Below are positions 18,714-24,712 of a DNA stretch of 60,584 nt, piece by piece. The stretch comes from Acidimicrobiia bacterium (GTDB lineage Bacteria > Actinomycetota > Acidimicrobiia > Acidimicrobiales > Bin134), in the NCBI GenBank assembly GCA_009843865.1, contig VYCQ01000003.1, positions 1-60,584 on the forward strand, given 5' to 3'. The stretch's first letter is position 1. Every line of letters begins with the position of its first letter. Under the pieces are notes generated by a model. It was not told the DNA's origin, did not search any database, and saw only the letters and a program-made list of their open reading frames with translations. A program made the position numbers and the translations under genes.

Positions 18714-21700
18714 CTAAGGACGAGTCTTTTTCCCCCCATGTACAGAGGGCTCAGCACACCACTGAAATCGTAGCGTCGATAATGGATCAAGAATGGTAGT
18801 GGGAAGATCAAGCACATCACACAACACCCGTTTATCTAATTCCTGACGAACATTATCCCGATAAGCCTCGTTGGCTGGCAGCATGGGGCGGTGCTCAAAC
18901 TGATCGAACACCTCGGCCAAGGCTTGGCGCTGATCGACCGAAATCGCTCTCAGATTCAGTACTGAAATACTCCCTAAAGTACTCACCGTAAGTCTGGCCC
19001 GACCCGTCTGTTGCCTATTAGAAACCCACCAGCGACCCACCAATCCCAGCGTGCTGTTCAACCACACACAGATTGCCTTCTCCCAATTCTCGTTCTCGAC
19101 CTCATCATCTGCCGTTGGCTGAAACGAGGGCCAAGCGACCCCACCGATAACAGGCTTGGGAGTCAAACACGCTGCCATCGGTTGCGAGTTCAACCTAAAA
19201 TCACTGTTGAGATGCAATCGAGTCGCGCCAGCTATGGAATATCCCAGCTCATTGATACGCCCATTCCACACGATAAGACCCAACCCCTTCATTTCGGAGC
19301 GCTCGATCCCCTGAGAACAAGGCAACACTTGCATAGTTGTCTCGAAGGTGTGATCGTGCGACCAAAGCACAGGCCAACTCGCCTCGGCATATCTAGATCG
19401 ATCTTTCAGCTTCACAATGTCGAACGGACCGCGAGAAGTCTCGTCTGTGTTGCGTCCAGAAATATCACGGTGAACCGGACCTCGGTATCCCAACTTGTTC
19501 AAAGTAGAAATCGGCAAGACAACAGGAGCATGACGCGGCAAATGCAACCGACCGGCAATTAACTCAGTGGAAACCACCATAACATCGACATTCGAGACAC
19601 CGACCGGCTGGCCCTTCATTTCTGGCCCCAATGGTGCGACAGCATGAAGGCCAATATCTTGACAGCCAACCATAAGCAAGCCGCTGTCTCCAGTCTTGGC
19701 ATTGATCTCTCGTGCCATCTCGACTCCGGCAACTGATGAAGAAGGTCGGTTGTTCAAGATGGCATGAACAATCTTCGATACGCCCGTCGCTGAACCAGCT
19801 TTCTTCGTAGCTAAAACAATTACTTCAGCCATTCCGGTGTCAGCTGAAAAGGCACGACCTTCAGAAGACTCATCTCCATGCCCAGATATGGATACAACAA
19901 TAATATTTTCATACCGAAGAGCCAGTAATCCTCGGGCACCACCCCACGCCGCTCCAGAGACCAGTGAGGCGGGCAAGATCAGAGCTAGCACACCACCGGG
20001 CTTCAATTTGATGTGAGCTAAGTCAATAAAATTAGAGGCAATCCCCGCATTACCGTGACTCGCTTTATCACCTCTGATTTCACCCGTACTCATGGCCAAT
20101 GCATCCGACATCGCCTTTTGATCTTTCAGATCATTCCCCAAACCAGCAAAGGCTGGGTTAGGCACCTCAGCATGACCAGCCTCATGATTGGTTGGGCGAG
20201 TAAACGGCGGGTTCATAATGGCAATGTCCAACGACTCTGCGGGAACGTCGGCGATAGCCAGCGCATCTTCTCCTTGAGCAGCAGCCGCCATTGTGCCATC
20301 ACCCCAAAGGACATAACGCTTGTTGGAATGGAGCAGATCAAGCGCACCGATCCGGTATCCGACTACGCCTTGGGTATCAGCCACCTTACCGTAAGGCATC
20401 ACCCAGGTCTTAGTGCTGGTGTAATCGATATCAGGCCGTTCTCCAGAAAGTCGCGCAACAGTCAAATGAACGGCGGCTGCCATAATGTCACAACCGATCA
20501 TCACCTCTTCCATGAGCGGCCGATGAACCTTGGCATCATCACCCCCCTCAACCCTGTGCCGCTCAACAATTCGTCGATACACCGCAGTCAGCAGTGCGCC
20601 CGTACCGCAGGCCATGTCACCCACTCGCAACCCGGCAATGGCTTCGGGGTTTGACCAATCTACATCCAAACGATCAACCGCTAACTCAGCTAACAGCGCC
20701 GCGGAAGCGGGGCGGGTGTAAAAAGTGGCGAGAAACTTGCGGTCACCAATCAACTCACCAAAGAATCGTCCAACCAAGCCTGACGAGTTCGGCTCTTCGA
20801 CAACCTCCCCTACGGTGAGACACAAAATTTCAAGCGCTCGCTTGGCCCCCACAAAGCTATTAATAACCCGCAACAGTCTTCGACTCACTCCAAAGATAGG
20901 CCAGTAGTTCACCTCCAAAATGTCCTGCCACATTTTCAAGACATGAAGCTGATCAAGCTTACTGTCGGCCATCATCTGAGACGGCGTTGGTATTTTCGGA
21001 TGATGATTCGCAATATGAAACTGAAACAGCATGGCGTTGAACAAAATGGCCATGGCCATGCGGTTGGTCTGCTCCCCCGGCTCCTGATTCAACACCTCTC
21101 CAAAGGCTTCTGTTGTCCCGACCCCCTCGGTTGCCTGCCCGACCGCTGCGGTCAAACGCACCTGCAACAACTCAGCTACAGGGCCAATATCCGCGCCATC
21201 AACCCCTGCCCGATCGATAAATGCGGCCAACTCAGCGATTCTGCCCTTTAACCACCCAGATTCGGGAAACCTAACCGGATCGCCTTCTCCGTTCACAGAC
21301 CACATCGCCCACTGAAATGTGATCTCGGTGAACACACCTTCGGCCAAGTCCTCGTCAGAAAAATCATCTAGTCGCTCGGGGCTTCTCATACCAACCACCA
21401 CACGGACTGCTCGCTGATCTGTAGCCCACTGCGTTCCAAAGTGTGCCAAGCACTGCTGCTCCAATGCCCGAGGAAAGACACCTGCGTACTTGTTTTCAAT
21501 CAGCACTCGTTCTCGGCCCGGCGCATCCACCGTGATATCAGGTTGTTTCGCTGAGCCAACCAACCTGCTAGCTCGCTCAGCCTCCACAACCGCCCTCGGA
21601 TGACAACGGCTAATAGCCGCAGCGATGGCAGCATTCAACGCTTTTTCATCACGATGACCAAATGAAGATTGAATTGTTGAACCAGCTACCAAACTAGCAG

Positions 21701-21731
21701 TTGTGGCAAAGGTCGGGCCAGCAGAAGACAT
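18714..21731 (-). CDS. Single-chain N6-adenine DNA methyltransferase with nuclease-like N-terminus (type IIG/IIL-like)
   Basis: A 1005-residue accessory protein. Near the N-terminus 'PDITVDA...VLIENK' (D65, E79, K81) resembles a PD-(D/E)xK nuclease core. The middle has a SAM-binding motif 'GDMACGTGALL' (near 372) and the amino-methyltransferase motif N-P-P-F (near 506), typical of gamma-class N6-adenine methyltransferases. The C-terminal ~400 residues would hold target recognition. One chain that both cuts and modifies would resemble type IIG enzymes, but the nuclease part could instead be inactive. No separate specificity or helicase gene is adjacent. It borders the three-gene hydrolase operon across tpx, so the stretch may be a small defence island. 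Confidence 0.75.
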   Translation of the reverse strand: MSSAGPTFATTASLVAGSTIQSSFGHRDEKALNAAIAAAISRCHPRAVVEAERASRLVGSAKQPDITVDAPGRERVLIENKYAGVFPRALEQQCLAHFGTQWATDQRAVRVVVGMRSPERLDDFSDEDLAEGVFTEITFQWAMWSVNGEGDPVRFPESGWLKGRIAELAAFIDRAGVDGADIGPVAELLQVRLTAAVGQATEGVGTTEAFGEVLNQEPGEQTNRMAMAILFNAMLFQFHIANHHPKIPTPSQMMADSKLDQLHVLKMWQDILEVNYWPIFGVSRRLLRVINSFVGAKRALEILCLTVGEVVEEPNSSGLVGRFFGELIGDRKFLATFYTRPASAALLAELAVDRLDVDWSNPEAIAGLRVGDMACGTGALLTAVYRRIVERHRVEGGDDAKVHRPLMEEVMIGCDIMAAAVHLTVARLSGERPDIDYTSTKTWVMPYGKVADTQGVVGYRIGALDLLHSNKRYVLWGDGTMAAAAQGEDALAIADVPAESLDIAIMNPPFTRPTNHEAGHAEVPNPAFAGLGNDLKDQKAMSDALAMSTGEIRGDKASHGNAGIASNFIDLAHIKLKPGGVLALILPASLVSGAAWGGARGLLALRYENIIVVSISGHGDESSEGRAFSADTGMAEVIVLATKKAGSATGVSKIVHAILNNRPSSSVAGVEMAREINAKTGDSGLLMVGCQDIGLHAVAPLGPEMKGQPVGVSNVDVMVVSTELIAGRLHLPRHAPVVLPISTLNKLGYRGPVHRDISGRNTDETSRGPFDIVKLKDRSRYAEASWPVLWSHDHTFETTMQVLPCSQGIERSEMKGLGLIVWNGRINELGYSIAGATRLHLNSDFRLNSQPMAACLTPKPVIGGVAWPSFQPTADDEVENENWEKAICVWLNSTLGLVGRWWVSNRQQTGRARLTVSTLGSISVLNLRAISVDQRQALAEVFDQFEHRPMLPANEAYRDNVRQELDKRVLCDVLDLPTTILDPLSTLRFQWCAEPSVHGGKKTRP

Positions 21732-21884
21732 AAGGCGATTGTAGAAGGAAGCCGCGACAACTTAGCTGCAAATGGACTGTGAAGAAATGAAACACATACC
21801 AATAAGCACAGCTCATACCAACAAACATCAAGAACATGATGCTTGGGCAAGGGATTAGAAGCAGAGAAGTGGTACAACCTTGGC

Positions 21885-22385
21885 ATGGCTGAAATTATGT
21901 TTAGAGGCAATCCTGTTCATACCAAAGGCGAGTTGCCTGCAATTGGTGCGGCTGCACCGGCATTCACACTTACCGGTGGTGATCTCTCTCAGGTCACGTT
22001 GGAAGGCTTGGCTGGTCGCAACGTGGTGCTCAACATCTTTCCCAGCATTGACACCGGGGTATGCGCTAGCAGCGTGAGAACCTTTAACGAACGTGCCAGC
22101 AACCTTGACAACACCACCGTGGTCTGCGTCTCAATGGACCTGCCCTTCGCTAGCGCTCGCTTCTGCGGCGCTGAAGACATCGAAAATGTAACCATTGGCT
22201 CGGTCTTCCGTAATCGGGAGTTCTTAGACAACTATGGCGTAGAGATGGTCGACGGTCCACTTGCTGGCCTAACTGCCCGGGCTGTTGTTGTCATCGCCCC
22301 TGACGGCACCCTCACGCACACCGAGCTTGTAAACGACATCACCTCAGAACCCAATTACGAGGCAGCACTCGCCGCCTGCTCCTGA
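21885..22385 (+). CDS. tpx: Thiol peroxidase
   Basis: A 166-residue atypical 2-Cys peroxiredoxin that reduces peroxides with thioredoxin. The peroxidatic Cys60 lies in 'SIDTGVC' and the resolving Cys94 in 'ARFC', matching the spacing in E. coli Tpx. The ATG at 21885 gives the normal family N-terminus; upstream in-frame codons are not needed. It sits between accessory genes, divergent from the methyltransferase gene. Stop TGA. Confidence 0.95.
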   Translation: MAEIMFRGNPVHTKGELPAIGAAAPAFTLTGGDLSQVTLEGLAGRNVVLNIFPSIDTGVCASSVRTFNERASNLDNTTVVCVSMDLPFASARFCGAEDIENVTIGSVFRNREFLDNYGVEMVDGPLAGLTARAVVVIAPDGTLTHTELVNDITSEPNYEAALAACS

Positions 22386-22431: not shown

Positions 22432-23091
22432 ATGGCTAAGCCACGTCAAATCCAACACCAAATCGCTCTCGTTGTACTTGGCGAATTTAATCCTTCAATC
22501 TTTCAGCCTTCATGATTTGCTCAAGAAGATTTGATCCGTCAGGAGGAAGTCGATGCTGCCAAAATTGAAATCATCCACCCAGAAGTAGCTGCTTTTCAGT
22601 TGGATTGGCTCCTTCTGCAAGTAACACGTAACCGTCTTGGTTTTCACTCAAACCGAGAATCGCATTACGAAGCTGCTAGGGACTTACTTATTGGCACACT
22701 TGACCTACTCCGACACATGCCAACTCGGGCACTAGGTGTTAATCACAACTTAGTGCTTGAGTACGAAACTCAGGGCCACTGCAACCAACTAGGGCGGGAA
22801 CTTGTGCCTGAAAACAAGTGGACAACCGTTCTGCAACGACCTGCCATGGCACGAGTCGAAGAACAAGGTGAACGAACAGATGGTCAGGATGGATATATCC
22901 GAGTAAGGATTGAGCCAATCTTAGATGAAGGCACCAAAGTCCTTTGTGAAGTGAACGATCACTTCAACTTATCTCCAGACAACCTACCTTCTTCAACAGT
23001 AGCGATAGTCAAGTTGTTAAACGAAGAATGGAGAAATATTGCAGAACGCGCAACTCATATAATTCAGTATGTGGAGACTCTGCTTAGATGA
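22432..23091 (+). CDS. Unrecognised protein, first gene of a three-gene operon, with in-frame TGA at codon 28
   Basis: Read from the ATG at 22432 the frame encodes 'GEFNPSIFQPS', then a TGA at 22513-22515, then 'FAQEDLI' and an unbroken 190-codon remainder. From memory, related uncharacterised proteins carry an N-P-x-x-F-x-P-x-W-F motif here, so the TGA sits exactly where Trp is expected. Without readthrough only a shorter product from TTG 22531 could be made, lacking the conserved N-terminus. The rest is soluble, with 'EIIHPEVAAFQLDWLLLQVTRNR' -like content (split for clarity: beta-rich then helical), reminiscent of TIGR04255-type proteins. Its TGA stop overlaps the next start as ATGA. Function unknown. 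Confidence 0.6.
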
Positions 23092-23633
23092 CAACAACTA
23101 ACACAACGAGACCTCTTGACATAAACAGCCCATATTCCGAAATGGCTGTTACCCCTGCTTTCGATATCCCCCCACAAGCCCGATCACCGGTATCTGCTAA
23201 TGTATCAACAACAGCGCCTCGCAATGATCAGATGACTGCCTTAGGGCATGATCGGCCTTACTTACCCGTTGGTCTACCTGTACCCCTACCAACACACACT
23301 GAAGCTCAACCACTCTTCACTGCTCTTCAGAAGTGGCAAGGAACCGTGTCTCAAGTAACCGACTCAACATTTAGCGCCGTGCTCTTGGATCTACTAGAAC
23401 CATCAGTGGAAGAGGTGGCTGAATTCGATCTCGAAGAAGTAAGTCGCGGAGACCTTGATCTTATTGCACCAGGTGCTGTGTTTTATTGGAGTATCGGTTA
23501 CCGCACTGAGCCGTCTGGAGAACGAAGCCGGTCGTCGGTTCTCGTATTCCGTCGTCTACCAGCTTGGAGCGAAAAAGATCTACAAAGAGCGACTGACAAT
23601 GCCAAGGAGCTTCGAAATAATTTCGGATGGTGA
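23088..23633 (+). CDS. Unrecognised 181-residue protein, second gene of the operon
   Basis: The first ~90 residues are Pro/Thr/Ser-rich and probably disordered. Residues about 95-165 form a compact conserved-looking domain with 'WQGTVSQV', 'FDLEEVSRGDLDLI' and 'PGAVFYWSIGYR', consistent with a small beta-barrel. No enzyme motif or membrane segment is seen. It is coupled on both sides: ATGA overlap with the gene before and TGATG with the hydrolase gene after. It probably acts with those two proteins; function unknown. Confidence 0.7.
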   Translation: MTTTNTTRPLDINSPYSEMAVTPAFDIPPQARSPVSANVSTTAPRNDQMTALGHDRPYLPVGLPVPLPTHTEAQPLFTALQKWQGTVSQVTDSTFSAVLLDLLEPSVEEVAEFDLEEVSRGDLDLIAPGAVFYWSIGYRTEPSGERSRSSVLVFRRLPAWSEKDLQRATDNAKELRNNFGW

Positions 23634-24712
23634 TGTCTCAACGCCCAGAGGACGATGAAATCGAAATAACACTCCTCGGCCCAGGTCGTGGAGAATGTTG
23701 CGTACTACATGTCGGCGGTGGTGAGTGGCTCGTCATTGACTCCTGTGTAACCCAGACCGGTCATCCCGCCGCTCTTTTCTACCTAGAATCTTTAGGAGTG
23801 TCACCTACCGCTGTCCGTTGGATTGTTGCCACCCATTGGCATGACGATCACATACGCTGCTTTGCAACATTGGTAGAAAAATGTTCCCAAGCGAGAGTGT
23901 TCCACTCCGCCGCCCTCGAAAAGGACGAGTTCACGGTGCTTGCCGCCTTAGATGCAGACTCGTTGATAGAGGGCTCTTCTGGAGCCAAAGAGATGTGGAA
24001 AACTTGGACCTATCTCAAGAACTCAGGACGAGGTTCACCAGAACTTACTTTATCAGACTTAAGAATCTTCCAACGACCTTTAGGCTTGAGCCCAAATTGT
24101 GAAATCTGGGCCTTATCTCCAAGCAATGCTTCAGTTGCGAAAGCTATAACTAACTTCAGCACCCTAATCGCTAAAGTTGGCCAACCCAAACGCGCCATCC
24201 CACGACCAGAACGTAACCCATCCTCGGTGGTAATTTGGGTAAGAACAGGTGATGTTATCGTTTTGCTTGGCGCTGACCTAGAGCGAACTTCTGAGGTGTC
24301 ACGAGGTTGGCAAGCAATCATTAACTCCAACGGCAGACCACTTGAACAGGCTCACTTGATCAAAATCCCTCATCACGGCTCGCATGATGCACATGACCAG
24401 GCTATGTGGAATAACCTTCTTGTACCCTATCCCATCGCTGGGCTCACTCCCTTTAAGCAGGGAAACATAAATCTCCCTAGAAACAGCGATCGCGCACGAA
24501 TCGCAAGCCTGACATCACAAGCTTGGCTTACCCGCGACAACGCCACCGCTCGTCCAAAACGACGTCCCCGCCCTGTTACTAAAACAATCAAAGAAGCAAC
24601 TCGCCGATTTGAACGATTATCAATCAACCCTGGACGCGTCACCTTTCGCTGCCACTCAACTCAACCCGTCAGATGGACAGTTGATGCTCCTTCTCCTGCT
24701 ATTCAGTTATAG
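23633..24712 (+). CDS. Metallo-beta-lactamase-fold hydrolase, third gene of the operon
   Basis: A 359-residue protein with the metal-binding signature 'THWHDDH' (H68, H70, D72, H73), a later 'LLGADLE' Asp and 'KIPHHGSHDA' His, which together complete a two-metal site. The arrangement resembles the hydrolase domain of ComEC/Rec2 proteins, but with no membrane channel, so it is cytoplasmic. The last ~70 residues are rich in Arg and Lys ('ARPKRRPRP') and could contact nucleic acid. ATG 23633 is preferred over 23627 because it overlaps the previous TGA stop as TGATG. Substrate unknown; a nuclease or phosphodiesterase role in defence is possible. Confidence 0.82.
   Translation: MSQRPEDDEIEITLLGPGRGECCVLHVGGGEWLVIDSCVTQTGHPAALFYLESLGVSPTAVRWIVATHWHDDHIRCFATLVEKCSQARVFHSAALEKDEFTVLAALDADSLIEGSSGAKEMWKTWTYLKNSGRGSPELTLSDLRIFQRPLGLSPNCEIWALSPSNASVAKAITNFSTLIAKVGQPKRAIPRPERNPSSVVIWVRTGDVIVLLGADLERTSEVSRGWQAIINSNGRPLEQAHLIKIPHHGSHDAHDQAMWNNLLVPYPIAGLTPFKQGNINLPRNSDRARIASLTSQAWLTRDNATARPKRRPRPVTKTIKEATRRFERLSINPGRVTFRCHSTQPVRWTVDAPSPAIQL

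What the first reader, a model, noticed from the sequence alone, without database searches (positions are those of the whole stretch)
22432..24712. Tightly coupled three-gene operon of two unknown proteins and a metallo-hydrolase
ATGA and TGATG overlaps bind the genes into one unit. The third is a ComEC-like metallo-beta-lactamase fold without a membrane channel; the first two have no assigned function. It lies near a restriction-modification gene. A new defence or stress system is plausible.
Basis: partly seen in the sequence, partly recalled or inferred. Interest (0 to 1): 0.75.

Follow-up and report, generated by a model that had tools for sequence, protein, structure and literature searches.

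The report
Mobile three-gene DNase defence module
Three tightly joined genes in this bacterium form a unit that recurs in the same order across bacteria, one archaeon and prophages, often at places where phage-defence systems sit; it probably protects cells from viruses with a DNA-cutting enzyme controlled by two proteins of unknown type, although the copy in this genome has its first gene interrupted.

Summary
Gene1-gene2-MBL is one module: all three genes, same order and strand, in 110 of 118 loci examined (about a dozen bacterial phyla, one Thermoplasmata contig, two plasmids, about 30 viral/prophage contigs). The three protein distance matrices correlate at r = 0.81-0.85, and dN/dS against a relative is 0.10-0.18. 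Placement is defence-like. Eight loci lie by Hma/DUF499 "BREX-related" genes (about 0.24 expected); P2-like prophages carry it between portal and gpA, the published old/tin defence hotspot; eleven lambdoid prophages carry it beside gene Q. In E. coli RefSeq the gene-1 relative WP_000143147.1 is named "anti-phage protein" in two records; I could not find the source. The MBL is ComEC/Avs1a/HamM-like, with intact ligands and about 47 extra residues between its metal motifs, where (by inference) the gates of related pro-nucleases lie, but no protease accompanies it. Gene 1 has a confident fold without a clear PDB match; gene 2 has an OB-like barrel behind a disordered tail. Correction: gene 1 here carries an in-frame TGA at codon 28, a Trp in 82/83 relatives, so this copy is probably broken or misassembled. 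Best reading: anti-phage/anti-MGE module with a DNase effector licensed by a gene1-gene2 sensor. Function untested here.

The parts
22432..23091 (+). gene 1 (219 codons plus stop), alpha/beta protein of unknown family; interrupted by in-frame TGA at 22513-22515
   Evidence: homologues in 110 loci; AF2 pLDDT 96
22513..22515 (+). in-frame TGA at codon 28 of gene 1, at a Trp conserved in 82/83 relatives
23088..23633 (+). gene 2 (181 aa): about 75 disordered residues, then an OB-like small beta-barrel and a C-terminal helix
23627..24712 (+). gene 3 (361 aa): ComEC/Avs1a/HamM-like MBL-fold predicted nuclease (start could be 23633)
23834..23851 (+). HWHDDH metal-binding motif (residues 70-75)
   Evidence: H70, D74, H75 93/93 and H72 92/93
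23852..24214 (+). interval between HxHxDH and N197, about 47 residues longer than in ComEC; the interval where the gating insertions of related pro-nucleases are inferred to lie
   Evidence: comparison with PMC12799240
24269..24283 (+). GADLE motif with ligand D217
   Evidence: D217 93/93
24371..24382 (+). HHGS motif (residues 249-252)
   Evidence: H250 93/93

Best explanation
A mobile anti-phage or anti-mobile-element module. Gene 3 is a DNA-cutting MBL effector kept inactive in the resting cell, probably by the extra segment beside its active site. Genes 1 and 2 form a sensor/regulator pair: a curved alpha/beta protein and an OB-like protein with a long disordered tail, probably touching nucleic acid. 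They release the nuclease when foreign DNA replication or a phage component is present, giving DNA degradation and block or death of the infected cell. Shown: conserved unit, co-inheritance, purifying selection, catalytic ligands, defence-type locations. Inferred: DNase activity, gating, the role of genes 1 and 2, the trigger. In this genome the module is likely impaired because gene 1 is interrupted.
For: Three-gene synteny in 110/118 loci; 43 of 45 strong gene-1 matches in 44 whole genomes sit directly by gene 2; distance-matrix r 0.81-0.85 against null maxima near 0.2; dN/dS 0.11, 0.18, 0.10 by NG86. Location: DUF1156 methyltransferase of Hma/BR operons in 8 loci, six of them directly downstream of the MBL, against about 0.24 expected from 55 such genes in 44 genomes; between portal and gpA in P2-like prophages, the hotspot that carries old and tin; beside Q in 11 lambdoid prophages, between holin and Q in 14/5426 E. 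coli genomes. RefSeq product name 'anti-phage protein' for the gene-1 relative WP_000143147.1. MBL: ComEC MBL structure E 7.7e-12; PADLOC LmuA, RTasMBL and Avs1a hits; related MBLs are proteolysis-gated DNases (PMC12799240).
Against: No protection or nuclease assay exists here. No protease or recognisable sensor accompanies the MBL, so the published gating mechanism cannot apply unchanged. Nearest PDB folds for genes 1 and 2 are at background level. The Hma association may be one or few transfers among sponge-associated genomes. The general PADLOC tally is only moderately higher near the module than farther off. The source of the RefSeq name is unknown.
Confidence: 0.62

Rival explanations
1. 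Toxin-antitoxin-like maintenance module: the MBL is a DNase toxin held by genes 1 and 2, keeping prophages, plasmids and islands in the cell; any phage effect is secondary.
For: Found on plasmids, prophages and islands; tight operon with a hydrolase last.
Against: Repeated placement inside Hma/BR operons and the P2 defence hotspot; two conserved partner genes is unusual for a simple antitoxin.
Confidence: 0.15
2. Accessory effector of restriction-like systems only: the module works as a backup nuclease that needs a neighbouring RM/Hma/BR system for its signal.
For: Direct embedding between DUF499 and DUF1156 genes in several loci; a methyltransferase gene near the window module and an ORF of like size at the same place in L008.
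Against: Most loci, including the E. coli prophages, have no Hma/BR partner.
Confidence: 0.12
3. Phage counter-defence or phage-fitness genes (not cell defence): prophages carry the module for their own replication or lysogeny, and chromosomal copies are relics.
For: About 30 viral contigs carry it.
Against: Most relatives are on chromosomal contigs of many phyla, some next to bacterial defence genes; the chromosomal pair compared is under purifying selection.
Confidence: 0.06
4. Housekeeping or stress metabolism enzyme with two helpers.
For: The MBL superfamily has many metabolic members; a thiol-peroxidase-like gene sits 46 nt upstream here and in L008.
Against: Rare and patchy (1 of 296 Actinomycetota sampled; 14 close matches in 5426 E. 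coli), no constant metabolic neighbour.
Confidence: 0.05

Closest known systems
Gated MBL pro-nucleases of nuclease-protease pairs (HamM, Avs1a, Lamassu and DRT MBLs, CanC of Canu; PMC12799240)
   Same: ComEC-like MBL fold, conserved ligands, extra segment between HxHxDH and the NxxSVVL strand, encoded beside non-homologous partners, mobile and defence-associated
   Different: No trypsin or caspase partner; scores far below the Avs1a (21.8 vs 420 bits) and 6A-MBL (13.5 vs 220 bits) cut-offs; own pair of partner genes
Hma / DUF499-centred BREX-related (BR) systems (PMC12839542)
   Same: Module is inserted within such operons in several genomes
   Different: The module has none of the three core BR genes and usually occurs without them; the main text of that paper does not mention a lactamase-fold effector
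ComEC/Rec2 DNA-uptake nuclease domain
   Same: Best sequence-detectable solved relative of gene 3
   Different: No membrane channel, extra segment, different partners
E. coli prophage 'anti-phage protein' WP_000143147.1 and its operon
   Same: Homologue of gene 1 in the same three-gene order
   Different: Distant (about 21% identity for the near-identical L102 copy); the basis of the name is not known to me

Membership tests
Gated MBL nuclease-protease systems | MBL fold with HxHxDH, Asp and His ligands, ComEC-like | tested here: met
Gated MBL nuclease-protease systems | Insertion(s) next to the active site relative to ComEC that block it | tested here: inconclusive
   About 47 extra residues between H75 and N197 (about 122 vs about 75 in 9ic4); blocking of the site not modelled
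Gated MBL nuclease-protease systems | Adjacent trypsin- or caspase-type protease | tested here: not met
   Genes 1 and 2 match no protease family; no recurrent protease neighbour among the clusters scanned
Gated MBL nuclease-protease systems | Cleaves DNA after activation | not testable with these tools
   Needs biochemistry
Avs1a (NF041809) | Score above the 420-bit cut-off | tested here: not met
   21.8 bits
6A-MBL (NF058524) | Score above the 220-bit cut-off | tested here: not met
   13.5 bits for the window protein, 27.6 bits for the E. coli relative
Hma/BR system | DUF499 ATPase, DUF1156 methyltransferase and helicase in the operon | tested here: not met
   The only two DUF1156 matches of the genome lie on other contigs
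ComEC DNA uptake | Membrane channel (Competence) domain | tested here: not met
   361-aa protein with only an MBL match in Pfam
Anti-phage defence system (functional class) | Protects against phage infection | not testable with these tools
   Only location, distribution and a RefSeq product name

The most novel reading that the evidence does not exclude
A stand-alone, deeply spread immune system in which a DNA-degrading MBL effector is switched on without proteolysis, by a two-protein sensor of previously undescribed families (a curved alpha/beta protein and an OB-like adaptor); that is, a second, protease-free way of controlling the ComEC-like immune nucleases.
Probability: 0.4. Interest if true: 0.8.

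Novelty: new variant of a known kind. Interest (0 to 1): 0.66.

Why it matters
MBL nucleases were shown in 2025 to be shared, protease-activated effectors of several immune systems. This module keeps such an enzyme with two other conserved proteins and no protease, across many phyla, an archaeon and prophages, and sometimes inside BREX-related operons. It would show a different control mechanism for the same kind of effector, and natural E. coli prophage copies make it directly testable in a laboratory strain.

Tried and rejected
Gene 1 as a member of a named family: no NCBIfam family was hit by more than one of 82 members, all weakly. Gene 1 or 2 as a protease: no family match; the conserved residues of gene 1 (N20, P21, P26, W28, D84, G102, N104, P126, W130, N175) show no Ser/Cys triad. 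Fold searches: gene 1 best Z 8.4 to McsB and arginine kinases, then AdoMetDC and a TBP chain, in the range of background; one viral model of unknown name matches better (A0A515MGR4, TM 0.63-0.68, E 1.3e-9); gene 2 best Z 7.9 to eIF5A OB domains. TGA as a sense codon: rejected, genes 1 and 2 themselves end in TGA. Papers: none found naming this operon; the DefensePredictor passages read name no MBL system; Brenes and Laub 2025 (prophage defence) is not held, so a published test of the E. coli module there cannot be excluded. The gene-1 and gene-2 alignments could not seed viral scans. Actinomycetota survey: gene 1 in only 1 of 296 genomes.

Full report
What is there. The window holds three overlapping genes on the + strand: gene 1 at 22432-23091, gene 2 at 23088-23633 (ATGA overlap) and gene 3 at 23627-24712. 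Gene 3 is an MBL-fold hydrolase. Genes 1 and 2 match nothing in Pfam, PADLOC or NCBIfam (82 and 94 relatives scanned gave only isolated weak hits).

From its ATG, gene 1 runs into a TGA at codon 28 (22513-22515) and would need to restart at a TTG at 22531. Codon 28 is Trp in 82 of 83 aligned relatives and intact in the two close relatives checked, L008 and L003. TGA is a normal stop here, since genes 1 and 2 both end in it. So this copy is either really interrupted or the base is an assembly or sequencing error in a draft genome of 43 contigs. Gene 1 is also split over frames in a few other loci (L059, L083, L086). For searching and folding I read the codon as Trp.

It is a conserved unit. The MBL alignment found relatives in genome and viral collections. 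Profiles of genes 1 and 2, built from only five and six sequences, then recovered partners at almost every one: 110 of 118 loci hold all three, in the order gene 1, gene 2, MBL. Five of the eight exceptions are cut by a contig end (L009, L014, L015, L030, L069); L061 lacks a gene-1 match, L119 is a remote MBL, and L004 is a viral contig with a lone gene-2 domain. Record titles span about a dozen bacterial phyla and a Thermoplasmata contig (L087); two plasmids (Adhaeribacter, Pantoea) carry it as well. In a reverse test on 44 whole genomes, 43 of 45 strong gene-1 matches lay beside gene 2; the other two are at a contig end (G352) or on another contig with an internal stop (G353). These genomes were chosen because they hold the module, so this tests for orphan copies only. 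Distance matrices of the three proteins over 89 non-redundant loci correlate at 0.85, 0.81 and 0.83, with permutation maxima of about 0.2, so they travel together. Between the window and L008, dN/dS (NG86) is 0.11, 0.18 and 0.10. It is rare: 1 of 296 sampled Actinomycetota, 14 close and 3 divergent matches among 5426 E. coli genomes.

It sits where defence genes sit. The recurrent chromosomal neighbours include the DUF1156 methyltransferase, DUF499 ATPase and SNF2/PLD helicase of Hma, also called DUF499-centred BREX-related systems (PMC12839542). A DUF1156 gene lies in 8 loci; in six it is directly downstream of the MBL. The 44 whole genomes searched, which include all eight, hold 55 DUF1156 matches in about 214 Mb, so about 0.24 would be expected in the stretches held. 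The eight may not be independent, as several come from sponge-associated genomes. A PADLOC tally of 124 genes within 3 kb showed HmaB six times; it is not among the families listed for 135 genes more than 6.5 kb away, though other defence families appear in both sets. In P2-like prophages (L097, L100, L109; L098 and L101 by similarity) the module is next to gpA, and where both sides are held the other side is the portal gene: this is the region that carries old and tin in P2 and was published as a hotspot of antiviral systems (PMC9122126). In eleven lambdoid prophage contigs it lies beside and convergent with antiterminator Q, in E. coli between holin and Q. There the gene-1 relative WP_000143147.1 is called 'anti-phage protein' in two records and 'hypothetical protein' in others with the same accession. 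No NCBIfam model of the copy at hand explains this name and no held paper cites the accession, so I treat it as a lead and not as proof.

How it may work. Gene 3 keeps the metal ligands H70, H72, D74, H75, D217 and H250 almost without exception. Its best solved relative by sequence is the ComEC nuclease domain (9ic4, 7.7e-12), and PADLOC places it near MBLs of Lamassu, DRT and AVAST. Tuck et al. 2025 (PMC12799240) showed that such MBLs are gated pro-DNases opened by a partner trypsin or caspase that cuts loops over the active site. Our family has about 47 more residues than ComEC between the HxHxDH motif and the NxxSVVL strand; that the published gates lie in the same interval is my inference from residue numbers. 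But no protease is present: genes 1 and 2 match none and show no triad. Gene 1 folds with high confidence (pLDDT 96) into a two-layer alpha/beta protein with a long C-terminal helix, with only background-level resemblance to phosphagen kinases, AdoMetDC and TBP. Gene 2 has a disordered N-terminal stretch of about 75 residues and an OB-like barrel (pLDDT over 90 in the barrel), a fold often used to bind single strands or partners. I infer that genes 1 and 2 form a sensor or adaptor that holds and releases the nuclease. Shown: unit, selection, ligands, location. Inferred: substrate, gating, trigger, outcome.

Novelty. The effector type is known; the pairing with these two families and the absence of a protease are not described in the papers I could read. 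Because RefSeq already links an E. coli relative to phage defence, and one relevant paper was not available, I class it as a new variant of a known kind rather than categorically new.

Noticed in passing
window 18714-21731 (-): 1005-aa methyltransferase with an N-terminal stretch that looks by eye like a PD-(D/E)XK nuclease (IENKY), possibly a single-chain type IIG-like restriction-modification enzyme; a 1019-aa ORF lies at the same place in L008.
   Followed up: partly
window 21843-22385 (+): Redoxin/thiol-peroxidase-like gene ends 46 nt before gene 1; spacing is the same in L008, so it may be co-transcribed in this lineage.
   Followed up: partly
G000 contigs C36:11365-11577 and C21:153974-154183: The same genome holds two DUF1156 (Hma/BR-type) methyltransferase matches away from the module.
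   Followed up: no
L004:4818-5264 (+): A viral contig encodes only the gene-2 OB-like domain, without genes 1 and 3; it could be an inhibitor or decoy of the module.
   Followed up: no
L059, L083, L086, gene-1 regions: Gene 1 is also broken across frames in a few other loci, so loss of gene 1 may recur.
   Followed up: partly
BFVD A0A515MGR4: A 202-aa viral protein of unknown name matches the gene-1 model at TM 0.63-0.68 with 15% identity.
   Followed up: no
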